From positions 248,001 to 312,000 of the forward strand of contig NZ_JAJBZT010000003.1 of the NCBI RefSeq assembly GCF_020564625.1: a stretch of 64,000 nt of DNA, written 5' to 3'. The stretch comes from Leeia speluncae. Lineage in GTDB: Bacteria > Pseudomonadota > Gammaproteobacteria > Burkholderiales > Leeiaceae. The notes below the pieces were generated by a model. It was not told where the DNA came from and did no database searches. It was given only the letters and a program-made list of their open reading frames with translations. A program made the translations under genes and the position numbers. Positions within the stretch are counted from its first letter, which is position 1; every line of letters starts with the position of its first letter. This document shows, one piece after another, positions 29,072 through 33,028 of this stretch.

Positions 29072-29103
29072 GTTTGGCTAACTAATCAACAAGTTAGCCA
29101 AAC
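29072..29103. terminator. Convergent hairpin between aauR and gpx
   Basis: A 12-bp perfect stem (29072-29083 with 29092-29103) with an 8-base loop, starting 9 bases after the aauR stop and touching the gpx stop codon. No T-run on either side, so strength as a terminator is uncertain. Confidence 0.5.
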
Positions 29104-29582
29104 TAGCCCAATAACTTCTCAATATCTGCGGCCATTTTTTCTGGCTTTGTCCAACTCGCATATCGCCGAATTACCTTGCCATCTCTACCAATTAAAAACT
29201 TGGTAAAGTTCCAGCGAATTGGCTGCCCGAATATCCCTTTTGCTTCTTTCTTTAGCCATTGATAAAGCGGGATAGTGGCATGCCCATTGACATCAATTCG
29301 CTCAAACATAGGGAAGCTAACGCCATAGTTCTTTTGGCAAAAAGCACCAATTTGGGATGCATTGCCAGGTTCTTGCTTCCCAAATTGGTTGCATGGAAAC
29401 CCGAGAATCTCTAGTCCCTTTGCATGATACTGCTGATAAAGCGCCTCTAACCCCGCATACTGCGGTGTAAAACCACATTGGCTCGCCGTGTTAACCACCA
29501 ACACTACTTTGCCTTGATACTCGGCCAAATCAATTGGCTTACCGGCTAACGATACCGCTTTAAAATCTGCAATAGTAGGCAT
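29103..29582 (-). CDS. Glutathione peroxidase family protein
   Basis: A 159-residue thiol peroxidase with the catalytic Cys36 in NTASQCGFTPQY (a Cys, not selenocysteine, enzyme), FPCNQFGKQEPG with the conserved Gln, and WNFTKFLIGRDG with the conserved Trp-Asn. The loop Cys in FPCNQ suggests the thioredoxin-dependent type. It is 24 bases after metW in the same direction and may share its transcript. Confidence 0.93.
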   Translation of the reverse strand: MPTIADFKAVSLAGKPIDLAEYQGKVVLVVNTASQCGFTPQYAGLEALYQQYHAKGLEILGFPCNQFGKQEPGNASQIGAFCQKNYGVSFPMFERIDVNGHATIPLYQWLKKEAKGIFGQPIRWNFTKFLIGRDGKVIRRYASWTKPEKMAADIEKLLG

Positions 29583-29606: not shown

Positions 29607-30206
29607 TTACTTGGTAAATCGGAAAATCGCCAAACTGGCTAATAAATTAGCTAAGAATGGAACGCGTTCGCCATTGTGTAAAGGGCGTACATCCTGCACA
29701 TGAAAACCAAGTTGCGTGCATAGGCGATGGAAGTCTTTGACCGTACAAAAGTGAATGTTCGGCGTATCGTACCATTGGTATGGAATCAGATCGGACACCG
29801 GCATTCTGCCTAGGATTAACTGACGGCGATTATCCCAAAAACCAAAATTTGGAAAAGACACAATACACTCTTTTCCTACGCGAGACATTTCTTTCAAAAT
29901 CCCTTCCACATCTTTCATCGCTTGAATGGTATGGCTCAAAATCACGTAGTCAAACGAGTCGCTTTCAAACATAGAAAGCCCTGACTCTAGGTTACTTTGA
30001 ATGACGTGCACACCATTATCTAAACAAGCAGATATATTGTCGTCATCCCGATCGACCCCGTAGCCACTTACTTTTCGGGTTTGCTGCAAGTAGGCCAACA
30101 AAGAACCATCGCCGCAACCTAAGTCGAGCACGCGACTACCTTCTTTGATTTGTTCGGCAATTTGTTTGAATTCTGGGCGAATATTTAATGAGACGTTTGC
30201 CATCAT
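29607..30206 (-). CDS. metW: Methionine biosynthesis protein MetW
   Basis: A 199-residue protein with a SAM-methyltransferase fold ([40 protein letters not shown]). It shows the MetW pattern [24 protein letters not shown]. MetW acts with MetX in homoserine acylation in Proteobacteria. The ATG overlaps the metX stop (ATGA), so the two are translationally coupled. Confidence 0.94.
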
Positions 30207-31351
30207 GCTACCTCTCGGTAAATGCGATCCATATAACGACGCATCACGGCGAAATACTGGGGATCTTTCATTAAGAAGGCATCATGTCCATGTGCCGATT
30301 CAATGTCTGCGTAAGTCACTGGTAAACGGTTATCGACCAATGCTTTTACAATTTCTCTAGAGCGATCAGGGGCAAAACGCCAATCTGAATCAAATGCGGC
30401 CACAAAGAAAGAGGCTTTTGCACGTGCCAACGCCCGGCTAAGATTGCCTTCTCCAAACCGCCTTGCAGGATCGAAATAATCCAGCGCTTTGGTCATTAGC
30501 AGGTAGGTATTCGCATCAAAGTAACCGGCAAATTTATCGCCCTGATAACGCAAGTAAGACTCGATCTCGAATTCGACATCAAAGCTATATTTGAACTTTT
30601 CATTGCGCAGCAGACGGCCAAATTTTTCACCCATTCCATCGTCAGACAAATAGGTAATGTGGCCTAACATACGAGCAAGACGCAAACCACGTGTTGGCAC
30701 TACGCCATGCTGGTAATAGTCACCATTATGGAAATCAGGGTCCGTCAAAATTGCCTGACGGGCGACATCATTAAACGCAATGTTTTGCGCAGATAGTTTG
30801 GGCGCAGACGCAATCACCACTGCATGGCGAATCCGCTCTGGGAAGCTCATGCTCCACATTAATGCCTGCATTCCGCCAAGGCTACCACCCACAACAGCCG
30901 CCCATTGAGTGATGCCTAAACGATCTGATAATCTGGCTTGAGAATCGACCCAATCTTTTACTGTCACCACCGGAAAGCGTGAACCGTAAGGTAGACCGGT
31001 CTCAGGGTTAATAGAAGATGGACCTGTCGAACCATGACATCCACCCAGGTTATTTAAACCCACCACAAAAAAGCGATTGGTATCAATTGGTTTGCCTGGG
31101 CCAATCATATTATCCCACCAGCCAACTTGCTTATCATCCGCGTGGTGTTTACCCGCTACGTGCTGATGGCCAGACAAAGCATGGCAAATTAAGATGGCAT
31201 TCGAAGCATCGCTATTTAGCTTGCCATAGGTTTCATACACAAGGTCGTAGTTTGCTAGTGTATTACCGCTAGTTAACGCTAGCGGTTCGTCAAAATGGGC
31301 AACTTGTGGCACCACAATGCCGACAGAATCGTTTTCGATAGACTGTGACAT
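30203..31351 (-). CDS. metX: Homoserine O-acyltransferase MetX
   Basis: A 382-residue alpha/beta-hydrolase enzyme that activates homoserine for methionine synthesis. The nucleophile Ser157 is in [10 protein letters not shown]; the acid is in [12 protein letters not shown] and the His in [26 protein letters not shown] is typical. Many MetX proteins paired with MetW use succinyl-CoA and not acetyl-CoA, so the acyl donor should be left open. Expression is controlled by the upstream SAM-II riboswitch and terminator. Confidence 0.94.
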
Positions 31352-31393
31352 GAATTCTCCTACTCGTAGATAAACGAGCGGTTAAAAAGCAAA

Positions 31394-31425
31394 AACCCGC
31401 CGGGCTATAGAAAGCGCGGCGGGTT
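31394..31425 (-). terminator. Leader terminator of the metX riboswitch
   Basis: AACCCGCCG pairs with CGGCGGGTT (9 bp, 14-base loop) and is followed on the minus strand by TTTGCTTTTT. It lies between the SAM-II aptamer and the metX ribosome site, so it is the natural expression platform for transcriptional attenuation. Confidence 0.88.
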
Positions 31426-31438
31426 TTTTGAGTCCATT

Positions 31439-31494
31439 CCAACGCTTTAGCCCCATTTATTGCGCGCCGGCAAGCTGTGTCAAATCGGCGCGGT
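31439..31494 (-). ncRNA. SAM-II riboswitch upstream of metX
   Basis: Read on the minus strand, CGCGCC (31492-31487) pairs with GGCGCG (31468-31463) to form P1. The loop reads GATTTGACACAGCTTGC, and the 3' part CAATAAATGGGGCTAAAG carries the conserved AATAAATG and GCTAAA blocks of the SAM-II (SAM-alpha) pseudoknot. Spacing and order agree with the class, which typically controls metX, metA and other methionine genes. High SAM should favour the downstream terminator or block expression. Confidence 0.9.
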
Positions 31495-31528
31495 ACTTAT
31501 TCTTTTTTGAATAAATACTCATAACTAA

Positions 31529-31557
31529 ACTGTAATACGAGTCGTTTGACGTGTCAA
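31529..31557 (-). promoter_or_regulatory. Sigma70 promoter of the metX leader
   Basis: On the minus strand TTGACA (31557-31552), 17-base spacer, TACAGT (31534-31529). Transcription would start near 31522, about 28 bases before the riboswitch. An inverted repeat TTTGAC-N2-GTCAAA (31545-31558) overlaps the -35 box and could be an operator. Confidence 0.75.
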
Positions 31558-31587
31558 ATACTCAGATTCGTCTCTAGGTACTAGACG

Positions 31588-31613
31588 AAAAAAACCGGGC
31601 AATTTGCCCGGTT
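31588..31613 (-). terminator. Terminator of the rhamnose operon
   Basis: AACCGGGC, 5-base loop, GCCCGGTT, then T-run on the minus strand (31594-31588), 54 bases after the rhaK stop. The stretch 31352-31666 otherwise holds the metX promoter, riboswitch and attenuator described above. Confidence 0.9.
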
Positions 31614-31666
31614 AAAAAACGCGCCCTCTCATGCCCATGATGGGTTCGCGATTCCTCAAGTGGAAT

Positions 31667-33028
31667 TCAATGTGCCAGTGCACTTTCTAGCCACACGTCA
31701 TAATAGGCTTGGATAGCATCCGATAAGGTTGGAACAATTTCACGCAGCTGCTTAATAGGTATATTGTCTGTCTGACAGAGTAACAAGGCGCCCCCCGTTG
31801 TACCGGCTAGATCATCAGAACAGTAAACACGTCTTGACGAGTCTAAGCCCGCAAGCAGTGCGGCAAAGAAGGGATTACCCGCCAAACCACCTTCAATGAC
31901 ATGGCGACCTTGGCTACCCAGCTTTTGCAAACAATAGTGCGTCACGCACACCAAATAAAGTGTGGCTAGCGCGTATTTTTCTTCCGCTGAAAGTACCCGG
32001 TCTGTCGTGATCTTTCCGGATTTACCCATAAATGGCCCACCCGTTTCGGCAAATGCAGGTAAAGCGAAAATCGATTCACTGATTAGCCGAGAAATGTCTG
32101 CTTCTGCACAAGGGGAAAGTGATTGCCCGGCAATTTCAGCGAACTCTCGCCCCCCCATAAAGCGTGCACAGGCAATGGCTTGCCCATAGGCACTTACATT
32201 CGCAAGCATGTCTGCAGATTCTTCAATGCATGAGACATCGCCGCCAATATTCGCCATGATGAGCCAAGTTCCAGAGGAAAGGACAGTGAGTGATTCCCCC
32301 TTGCTTGAGGCAGACAAATACGGCAGTAAAGACGCATTACTATCATGAATGCCCGCAATGACTTCGCAGTGTGCTGCTAACCCTGTCTCTAAAGCCACCG
32401 TCGGCAACACTGTGCCGACCACGGTATTGGCACTTACTAAAGGAGGAAACAAATGCCGCCAGCCTTTTTTTGCGACCAAACTAGAAAAATCACCAGTGCT
32501 CGGCGTCCATAAATCGGTATGACAACCTAAAGAGGTGACTTCACTTACCGCATGCCCAGTGAGTCGCCACGCCCAATATTGGGGATACATGAGAATAGAC
32601 GTAACCTGTGCGAATGCTTCTGGTTGGGTATTGGCGAGCCATGCAATTTGCCGTCCTAGATTTAACCCTGCGGGTAGTTTAGGCGAGCAAGTTTCTTGAA
32701 AACTGGGGCGCTCATTTGCGTAAAGCGCTTCGTCCTCTATCCCCCATTCATAATCCATCACAGGAAACACCAACTCCCCATCACCAATCAAGGCGGCCGT
32801 TGCGCCATGTGTCGTGGTTACAAATTGGGTAATCGCTAGTCGATCAGAAAAGGATTGCAAGGTCTGGCATAACCACGCCCATAAGCCATCTACGTCTGCA
32901 TGGGGATAACGCCCCGTCTGCACAACGTGATTCAGTGTTCTGGTTTCAAGCAGTACCGCTCCGGAACGAGTGGTCACCGTCAACTTGGCATTGGTTTTGC
33001 CAATATCAAAAACTGCGATCAGTGACAT
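31667..33028 (-). CDS. rhaK: Sugar kinase RhaK (FGGY family), L-rhamnulokinase
   Basis: A 453-residue FGGY-type kinase. The phosphate-1 motif is FDIGKTNAKL at the N-terminus, then TTTHGATAALI, DYEWGI, GIHDSNASLLPYL with the catalytic Asp, and VLSSGTW for ATP binding. In the Rhizobium rha operon the kinase at this position phosphorylates L-rhamnulose and is also needed for transport by RhaSTPQ. It is last in the operon, two bases after rhaU, and followed by a strong terminator. Confidence 0.87.
   Translation of the reverse strand: MSLIAVFDIGKTNAKLTVTTRSGAVLLETRTLNHVVQTGRYPHADVDGLWAWLCQTLQSFSDRLAITQFVTTTHGATAALIGDGELVFPVMDYEWGIEDEALYANERPSFQETCSPKLPAGLNLGRQIAWLANTQPEAFAQVTSILMYPQYWAWRLTGHAVSEVTSLGCHTDLWTPSTGDFSSLVAKKGWRHLFPPLVSANTVVGTVLPTVALETGLAAHCEVIAGIHDSNASLLPYLSASSKGESLTVLSSGTWLIMANIGGDVSCIEESADMLANVSAYGQAIACARFMGGREFAEIAGQSLSPCAEADISRLISESIFALPAFAETGGPFMGKSGKITTDRVLSAEEKYALATLYLVCVTHYCLQKLGSQGRHVIEGGLAGNPFFAALLAGLDSSRRVYCSDDLAGTTGGALLLCQTDNIPIKQLREIVPTLSDAIQAYYDVWLESALAH

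What the first reader, a model, noticed from the sequence alone, without database searches (positions are those of the whole stretch)
31394..31557. SAM-II riboswitch with promoter and intrinsic terminator ahead of metXW-gpx
P1, the AATAAATG and GCTAAA blocks, a consensus sigma70 promoter and a terminator are all present in about 160 bases. SAM-II is best known from alphaproteobacteria; its use by a betaproteobacterial metX with a glutathione peroxidase as third gene is worth recording, since SAM level would then also affect peroxide defence.
Basis: partly seen in the sequence, partly recalled or inferred. Interest (0 to 1): 0.55.

Follow-up and report, generated by a model that had tools for sequence, protein, structure and literature searches.

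The report
SAM-II riboswitch before methionine genes
A bacterium of the genus Leeia carries a known kind of RNA sensor for the cofactor SAM in front of its methionine genes, most likely to stop their transcription when SAM is plentiful; this sensor type is already known in this class of bacteria, and the only odd feature is a peroxidase gene at the end of the same gene row.

Summary
Confirmed. On the minus strand at 31557-31391 lie a sigma-70 promoter, a SAM-II (SAM_alpha, RF00521) aptamer and an intrinsic terminator ahead of metX-metW-gpx. Rfam alone scores it below gathering (27.0 vs 36 bits), but a covariance model without Leeia sequences gives 62.8 bits (E 1.6e-16; next best in the window 11.1). 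The outer P1 pair covaries in relatives, the P2 strands are intact, and the metX leaders of both other Leeia genomes held carry the element. Most likely mechanism: without SAM the GGGCUAAAGCG strand pairs with the terminator hairpin (antiterminator); with SAM it is locked in P2 and transcription stops. Across 39 leaders this complementarity exceeds shuffles; for the window alone it is marginal (p 0.06). SAM-II in betaproteobacteria is not new: the 2005 discovery paper lists Bordetella. The 'novel' metXZ element of Leyn et al. 2014 is very probably this same SAM-II. The gpx position is real but local: 2 of 3 Leeia genomes, 1 of 80 named MetX loci. Co-transcription is inferred, not shown. New member of a known kind, modest interest.

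The parts
31529..31557 (-). sigma-70 promoter, TTGACA - 17 - TACAGT; the -35 box lies in a TTTGAC-AC-GTCAAA inverted repeat (31545-31558)
   Evidence: 10 of 12; I19; promoter of this kind in 33 of 40 leaders
31493..31518 (-). 5'-leader hairpin, 10 pairs with one G-U, loop of 6, directly before P1
   Evidence: I5; shuffled P 0.0015, noticed after the fact
31438..31493 (-). SAM-II aptamer
   Evidence: R1 62.8 bits, E 1.6e-16; RF00521 27.0 bits over 31501-31427
31487..31492 (-). P1, 5' arm CGCGCC (pairs with 31463-31468)
   Evidence: I9; covariation in relatives
31463..31468 (-). P1, 3' arm GGCGCG
   Evidence: I9
31470..31475 (-). P2 pseudoknot, loop strand GCUUGC
   Evidence: sequence; P2 cells paired 94.1% in 34 relatives, but no pair changes on both sides
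31444..31451 (-). P2 pseudoknot, tail strand GCUAAAGC (conserved block)
   Evidence: sequence; GCUAAA invariant in 34 of 34 aligned relatives
31443..31453 (-). antiterminator strand GGGCUAAAGCG
   Evidence: predicted partner of 31402-31416; partial-transcript folds
31402..31416 (-). antiterminator partner CGCUUU-cuau-AGCCC inside the terminator
   Evidence: duplex -15.3 kcal/mol; I7, I13
31391..31428 (-). intrinsic terminator between aptamer and metX
   Evidence: I1; -25.0 kcal/mol
30203..31351 (-). metX, homoserine O-succinyltransferase (382 aa)
   Evidence: NF047916 678.7 bits, cut-off 560
29607..30206 (-). metW (199 aa), overlaps metX by 4 nt
   Evidence: TIGR02081 252.5 bits, cut-off 189.5
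29103..29582 (-). gpx, glutathione-peroxidase family with Cys at the active site (159 aa), 24 nt after metW
   Evidence: PF00255 139.7 bits, cut-off 27; below the NCBIfam gpx cut-offs; Cys read from the sequence, active-site position recalled
29073..29102 (-). 10-bp hairpin just after the gpx stop codon
   Evidence: read by eye; not in the terminator list

Best explanation
A SAM-II riboswitch that turns off the metX-metW(-gpx) transcription unit by premature termination when SAM is plentiful. RNA polymerase starts about 30 nt before P1, so the aptamer is made first. With little SAM, the GGGCUAAAGCG strand of the aptamer pairs with CGCUUU..AGCCC of the emerging terminator (antiterminator) and transcription goes on. 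With SAM bound, that strand is held in the P2 pseudoknot, the terminator forms and metX is not reached. Shown by computation: aptamer identity, place, promoter, terminator, complementarity. Inferred: SAM binding, the switch itself, and that gpx is on the same transcript.
For: Covariance score with a model free of Leeia sequences; the same element before metX in the two other Leeia genomes held (53.7 and 65.9 bits); in 34 relatives the outer P1 pair shows six standard pair types and the structure has 17 cells changed on both sides (shuffled mean 5.8, 0 of 500 shuffles as high; slid versions at most 5); of 42 loci, MetX lies downstream in 12 and MetZ in 14, metH in two checked by family model; promoter in 33 of 40 leaders against 3% in shuffles; complement of the GCUAAA strand in the terminator region of 39 leaders, mean 5.4 pairs against 4.1 shuffled, Fisher p 2e-9, while an 11-nt control strand gives 4.0 against 4.2 and 0 of 39 below 0.05; folds of partial transcripts of the window give the antiterminator as minimum-energy state at 121 nt, and its CGCUUU half at 112 nt; no terminator found in the metW-gpx gap.
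Against: Rfam's own model scores it under gathering (27.0 of 36 bits). The covariation rests almost wholly on one outer P1 pair, at which 11 of 34 relatives do not pair; two other measures are weak (pairs changed on both sides: 17 of 500 shuffles as high; pair types: 271 of 500). P2 columns hardly vary and 6 of 34 relatives break its two outer pairs. In the window alone the antiterminator is marginal: p 0.06, 6.1% of whole-region shuffles and 1.2% of loop shuffles as good; the Leeia leader L023 shows no such complement (p 1.0) and 27 of 39 leaders are not below 0.05 singly; a wider version of the test is weaker (9 of 38 below 0.05, Fisher 0.0016). The leaders are related, so Fisher's p is too small. 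At full length the terminator is about 7 kcal/mol better than the antiterminator, so the switch must be kinetic. No binding or transcript data.
Confidence: 0.9

Rival explanations
1. It is SAM-II, but the switch acts mainly on translation or RNA decay and the terminator is not controlled by SAM, as predicted for Sinorhizobium metA.
For: In S. meliloti metA a terminator after a SAM-II aptamer is not predicted to be affected by SAM (passage). The window's own antiterminator evidence is marginal.
Against: Here the terminator lies between aptamer and gene, the AGGAG before metX is about 77 nt beyond the aptamer (read), and aptamer-terminator complementarity exceeds shuffles over 39 leaders.
Confidence: 0.12
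2. gpx is separate: it has its own promoter inside metW and SAM does not affect it.
For: gpx is behind metW in 2 of 3 Leeia genomes and found in 1 of 80 named MetX loci; promoter-like sites of 9 of 12 matches lie inside metW (30043-30015, 29953-29926).
Against: 24-nt gap here, 2-nt gap in Leeia oryzae, no terminator found between, number of promoter-like sites as in shuffles.
Confidence: 0.25
3. A different RNA element (the betaproteobacterial 'metXZ' element of Leyn 2014) that only resembles SAM-II.
For: Leyn et al. report SAM_alpha only in Rhizobiales and Rhodobacterales and describe metXZ as new.
Against: metXZ as described has the SAM-II pairing order (1 with 4, 2 with 6) and then a terminator; leaders in genomes of the same order run from 45.2 bits down through the gathering score to the window's level; Bordetella is in the SAM-II discovery alignment.
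Confidence: 0.04

Closest known systems
SAM-II riboswitch (RF00521; Corbino et al. 2005, PMC1273637)
   Same: P1, GAUUUG, P2 strands, GCUAAA block, promoter before P1, terminator before a methionine gene
   Different: lower Rfam score; in the three Leeia metX leaders 27-37 nt lie between -10 box and P1, where 23 of the 33 leaders with a promoter have 6-10 nt
metXZ RNA element of betaproteobacteria (Leyn et al. 2014, PMC4239095)
   Same: same genes (metXW or metZ), same class, same pairing order, terminator-antiterminator proposed; SAM-II found here before metZ in 4 of 4 Nitrosospira/Nitrosovibrio genomes searched, where Leyn put metXZ in Nitrosospira multiformis
   Different: described there as new, ligand not named in the passages seen; its alignment and Figure 8 could not be read here
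S. meliloti metZ SAM-II riboswitch (Scheuer et al. 2022, PMC9373788)
   Same: SAM-II aptamer with a transcription terminator, predicted off-switch (passages)
   Different: alphaproteobacterial; before metZ, not metXW

Membership tests
SAM-II riboswitch (RF00521) | score at or above Rfam gathering threshold (36 bits) | tested here: not met
   27.0 bits. A curated cut-off, not a structural feature; related leaders reach up to 45.2 bits
SAM-II riboswitch (RF00521) | significant homology to aptamers of the family | tested here: met
   R1, built on RF00521 hits from other genera: 62.8 bits, E 1.6e-16
SAM-II riboswitch (RF00521) | P1 stem | tested here: met
   7 complementary bases per arm in the window (I9); covariation in relatives, mainly at the outer pair
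SAM-II riboswitch (RF00521) | P2 pseudoknot between P1 loop and 3' tail | tested here: inconclusive
   strands complementary in the window; 94.1% of cells paired in 34 relatives, but no pair changes on both sides
SAM-II riboswitch (RF00521) | conserved GAUUUG, CUUGC, AAAU and GCUAAA blocks | tested here: met
   alignments
SAM-II riboswitch (RF00521) | lies before a methionine or SAM biosynthesis gene | tested here: met
   metX, metW
SAM-II riboswitch (RF00521) | binds SAM and discriminates against SAH | not testable with these tools
   needs in-line probing or ITC
SAM-II riboswitch (RF00521) | expression falls when SAM is high | not testable with these tools
   needs reporter or RNA data
metXZ element (Leyn 2014) | six conserved blocks, pairing 1-4 and 2-6, terminator after them, metXW or metZ downstream, betaproteobacteria | tested here: inconclusive
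   text description fits; the published alignment was not readable here

The most novel reading that the evidence does not exclude
The 'novel' metXZ RNA element of betaproteobacteria is SAM-II that falls under Rfam's cut-off, and these bacteria hold a large, mostly unlabelled SAM-II regulon: metX, metZ, metH, a MetN-like transporter gene, metK and a small orphan protein next to a MATE transporter. It includes a second, probably translation-controlling subtype (GACAACUUGC ... GCUAAAGCGUCG) that often stands in tandem behind the first; a variant of it is also in this genome.
Probability: 0.8. Interest if true: 0.45.

Novelty: new member of a known kind. Interest (0 to 1): 0.3.

Why it matters
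If metXZ is SAM-II, a betaproteobacterial RNA element described in 2014 as new gets an assigned ligand (SAM). Rfam's SAM_alpha cut-off seems to hide many copies in this order: 7 of 60 genomes have a match over gathering, while 44 of 60 have a match at E 0.001 with model R1 (23 of those 60 gave sequences to the model, so the count is partly built in). The gpx link is a small, testable oddity of Leeia.

Tried and rejected
Rfam rnk_pseudo (30.9 bits, E 0.0027, gathering 55) over the same stretch: driven by the terminator, rejected. Sub-threshold sRNA hits around 31585-31732 (Bp1_781, anti-hemB and others): they include the terminator of the upstream gene, rejected. Reading the E<=1 hits as real: rejected, because 8 of 14 control genomes also ring at that level. 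Rows dropped: L039 (a hit inside a coding repeat) from all counts; L011 as a copy of L024; L006 (set aside after one search found no terminator by my rule); L006 and L014. First antiterminator test (wider region): 9 of 38 below 0.05, Fisher 0.0016; with a narrower strand and region, run afterwards, is stronger; both are reported. Loop strand CAGCUUGC against the terminator: Fisher 9e-4, 7 of 39 below 0.05, but nothing in the window (3 pairs, p 1.0). Search for named Ralstonia or Burkholderia metX leaders through the plasmid collection: none among the 40 rows listed, 123 more not listed. AlphaFold model of a small protein behind the tandem element: mean pLDDT 59.8 with 3 sequences, too poor to use. 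Papers: PMC4239095 (passages and one section); PMC2258182, PMC2704228, PMC9373788, PMC9481103, PMC1273637, PMC12452182, PMC3766115 (passages only); all others listings only.

Full report
What is there. On the minus strand, between the terminator-like hairpin (31613-31593) behind an upstream sugar-kinase-like gene (31667-33028, under the family cut-offs) and metX, lie a promoter (31557-31529), a 10-bp hairpin (31518-31493), a SAM-II aptamer (31493-31438) and a terminator (31428-31391); metX, metW and gpx follow. The genome belongs to the genus Leeia: genome G002, told to be of the same genus, has a contig of the same length (964,035) as the Leeia oryzae DSM 17879 contig with the closest MetX found, 89% identical; Leeia is in Neisseriales, Betaproteobacteria.

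Is it SAM-II? Rfam's gathering search of the whole window finds nothing. A permissive search of 601 bases gives RF00521 at 27.0 bits, E 4.9e-4, full length, on the right strand; it is the only RF00521 match at E 0.001 in the genome. In 60 genomes (own, two of the genus, 57 of the order) 7 have a match over gathering. I aligned 34 of the 42 aptamers held, leaving out all Leeia sequences and one false hit, and built model R1. R1 gives the window 62.8 bits, E 1.6e-16; the next best place has 11.1 bits. In the whole genome it finds this locus and one more (61.7 bits), then drops to 17.6. The metX leaders of the two other Leeia genomes score 53.7 and 65.9 bits.

Structure. In the 34 relatives the outer P1 pair takes six standard pair types; 17 cells of the structure change on both sides against a shuffled mean of 5.8 (0 of 500 shuffles as high), and slid versions reach at most 5. 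Against this, 16 of the 17 cells sit at that one pair, 11 of 34 sequences do not pair there, and two other measures are near their shuffles (17 of 500 and 271 of 500 as high). The P2 strands are complementary in 94.1% of cells but no pair changes on both sides and 6 of 34 break the two outer P2 pairs, so P2 is consistent with these data, not proved by them. Corbino et al. report covariation for both P1 and P2 in more than 70 representatives (passage).

Promoter. A sigma-70 site in itself means little here (5 found, 4.9 expected), but 33 of 40 SAM-II leaders have one within 90 nt before P1, against 3% of shuffled sequences. In 23 of those 33 the -10 box ends 6-10 nt before P1, in line with Corbino's remark on start sites. 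In the three Leeia metX leaders it ends 27, 35 and 37 nt before P1 (one other leader, L004, has 29), and the gap holds a hairpin of different sequence in each (shuffled P 0.0485, 0.0485 and 0.0015). This was noticed after the fact, and four other leaders (L010, L016, L041, L042) also reach 6 or 7 pairs by the same rule, so it is a lead only.

How it works. The terminator of the window holds CGCUUU and AGCCC, the complement of GGGCUAAAGCG in the aptamer. Of five transcript lengths folded, the one that ends with AGCCC has that pairing as its best structure, and the one that ends with CGCUUU has half of it; at full length the terminator wins by about 7 kcal/mol. In 39 leaders, the window included, the terminator region holds longer complements of the GCUAAA strand than shuffles do (mean 5.4 against 4.1, Fisher p 2e-9, 12 of 39 below 0.05), and an unrelated control strand does not (4.0 against 4.2, 0 of 39). 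A wider version, run first, is weaker (9 of 38, Fisher 0.0016). Against it: the window alone gives p 0.06, the Leeia leader L023 has no such complement, and the leaders are not independent. SAM binding by this very RNA is inferred from the family.

gpx. metX and metW overlap by 4 nt; gpx starts 24 nt after metW with no terminator found between, and a 10-bp hairpin follows gpx (by eye). In Leeia oryzae the gap is 2 nt; in the third Leeia genome no gpx is found within about 4.5 kb behind metW. Among 80 named MetX loci, as far as their flanks are held, gpx is found in one, Leeia oryzae. So SAM control of gpx is plausible in two Leeia genomes but is not a conserved feature.

Distribution. 17 of the 80 named MetX loci have SAM-II just before metX (L050 holds only 10 nt upstream and could not be tested). 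By genus name I count 15 Neisseriales among the 80 (membership from memory), and only Leeia has it. Of 20 genomes behind named loci, 16 have an R1 match at E 0.001; Formivibrio and three Nitrosomonas have none. The matches lie before metZ in the four Nitrosospira and Nitrosovibrio genomes, before metX in two Uliginosibacterium and one Dechloromonas, and before other genes in the Neisseriales. Family models confirm metH behind two SAM-II loci and metK behind one; for two transporter ATPases MetN is the best match but under its cut-off.

What is known. [quoted passage not shown] Barrick and Breaker 2007 speak of SAM-II with terminators in alpha- and betaproteobacteria, and Meyer et al. 2009 of alpha-, beta- and gammaproteobacteria. 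Leyn et al. 2014 nevertheless report SAM_alpha only in Rhizobiales and Rhodobacterales and describe a new metXZ element in 35 betaproteobacterial genomes. Its described pairing order, its genes, its class and its place before metZ in Nitrosospira all fit SAM-II. No paper that says so turned up in my searches (open-access library only; I did not read every paper listed). Tandem SAM-II pairs, some with a terminator first and ribosome-site control second, are in print: 44 examples.

Verdict. A correct observation of a known kind of riboswitch in a class where the kind is already known. Modest interest; the most useful by-product is the probable identity of metXZ with SAM-II.

Noticed in passing
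L042 4875-5120 (own genome, contig C7 about 104874-105120): Second SAM-II locus of this genome: an aptamer with terminator, then a SAM-II-like element with an inserted hairpin and CAGC/GCUG as possible P2 strands (by eye), ahead of a 111-aa protein with no Pfam or NCBIfam match; same layout in both other Leeia genomes (L022, L025). The L025 protein has a weak MetW match (E 0.0018, far under cut-off).
   Followed up: partly
GCUAAAGCGUCG) ahead of a small MYDC/MFDC-type protein without Pfam match in the three tested; a MATE transporter gene follows (family model for L139 only, others by eye). Rfam sees the second element weakly at best (L142, 22.0 bits), and no SAM-V match at E 0.5.
   Followed up: partly
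L152 1501-1562: The second-type element alone ahead of metK in a Dechloromonas genome that also has SAM-II before metX; a SAH riboswitch (39.2 bits, over gathering) lies behind metK.
   Followed up: partly
L148, L149, L150 about 1501-1550: Shortened SAM-II variant without the AAAU block ahead of a transporter ATPase gene in three Neisseriales genomes; best match MetN, under its cut-off, in the two tested (L149, L150).
   Followed up: partly
window 31493-31518; L023; L024: Hairpin of differing sequence directly before P1 in the three Leeia metX leaders, with the promoter farther upstream than in most relatives; four other leaders also reach 6-7 pairs.
   Followed up: partly
window 31545-31558: Inverted repeat TTTGAC-AC-GTCAAA over the -35 box, a possible operator; not seen by eye in the other two Leeia metX leaders.
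   Followed up: no
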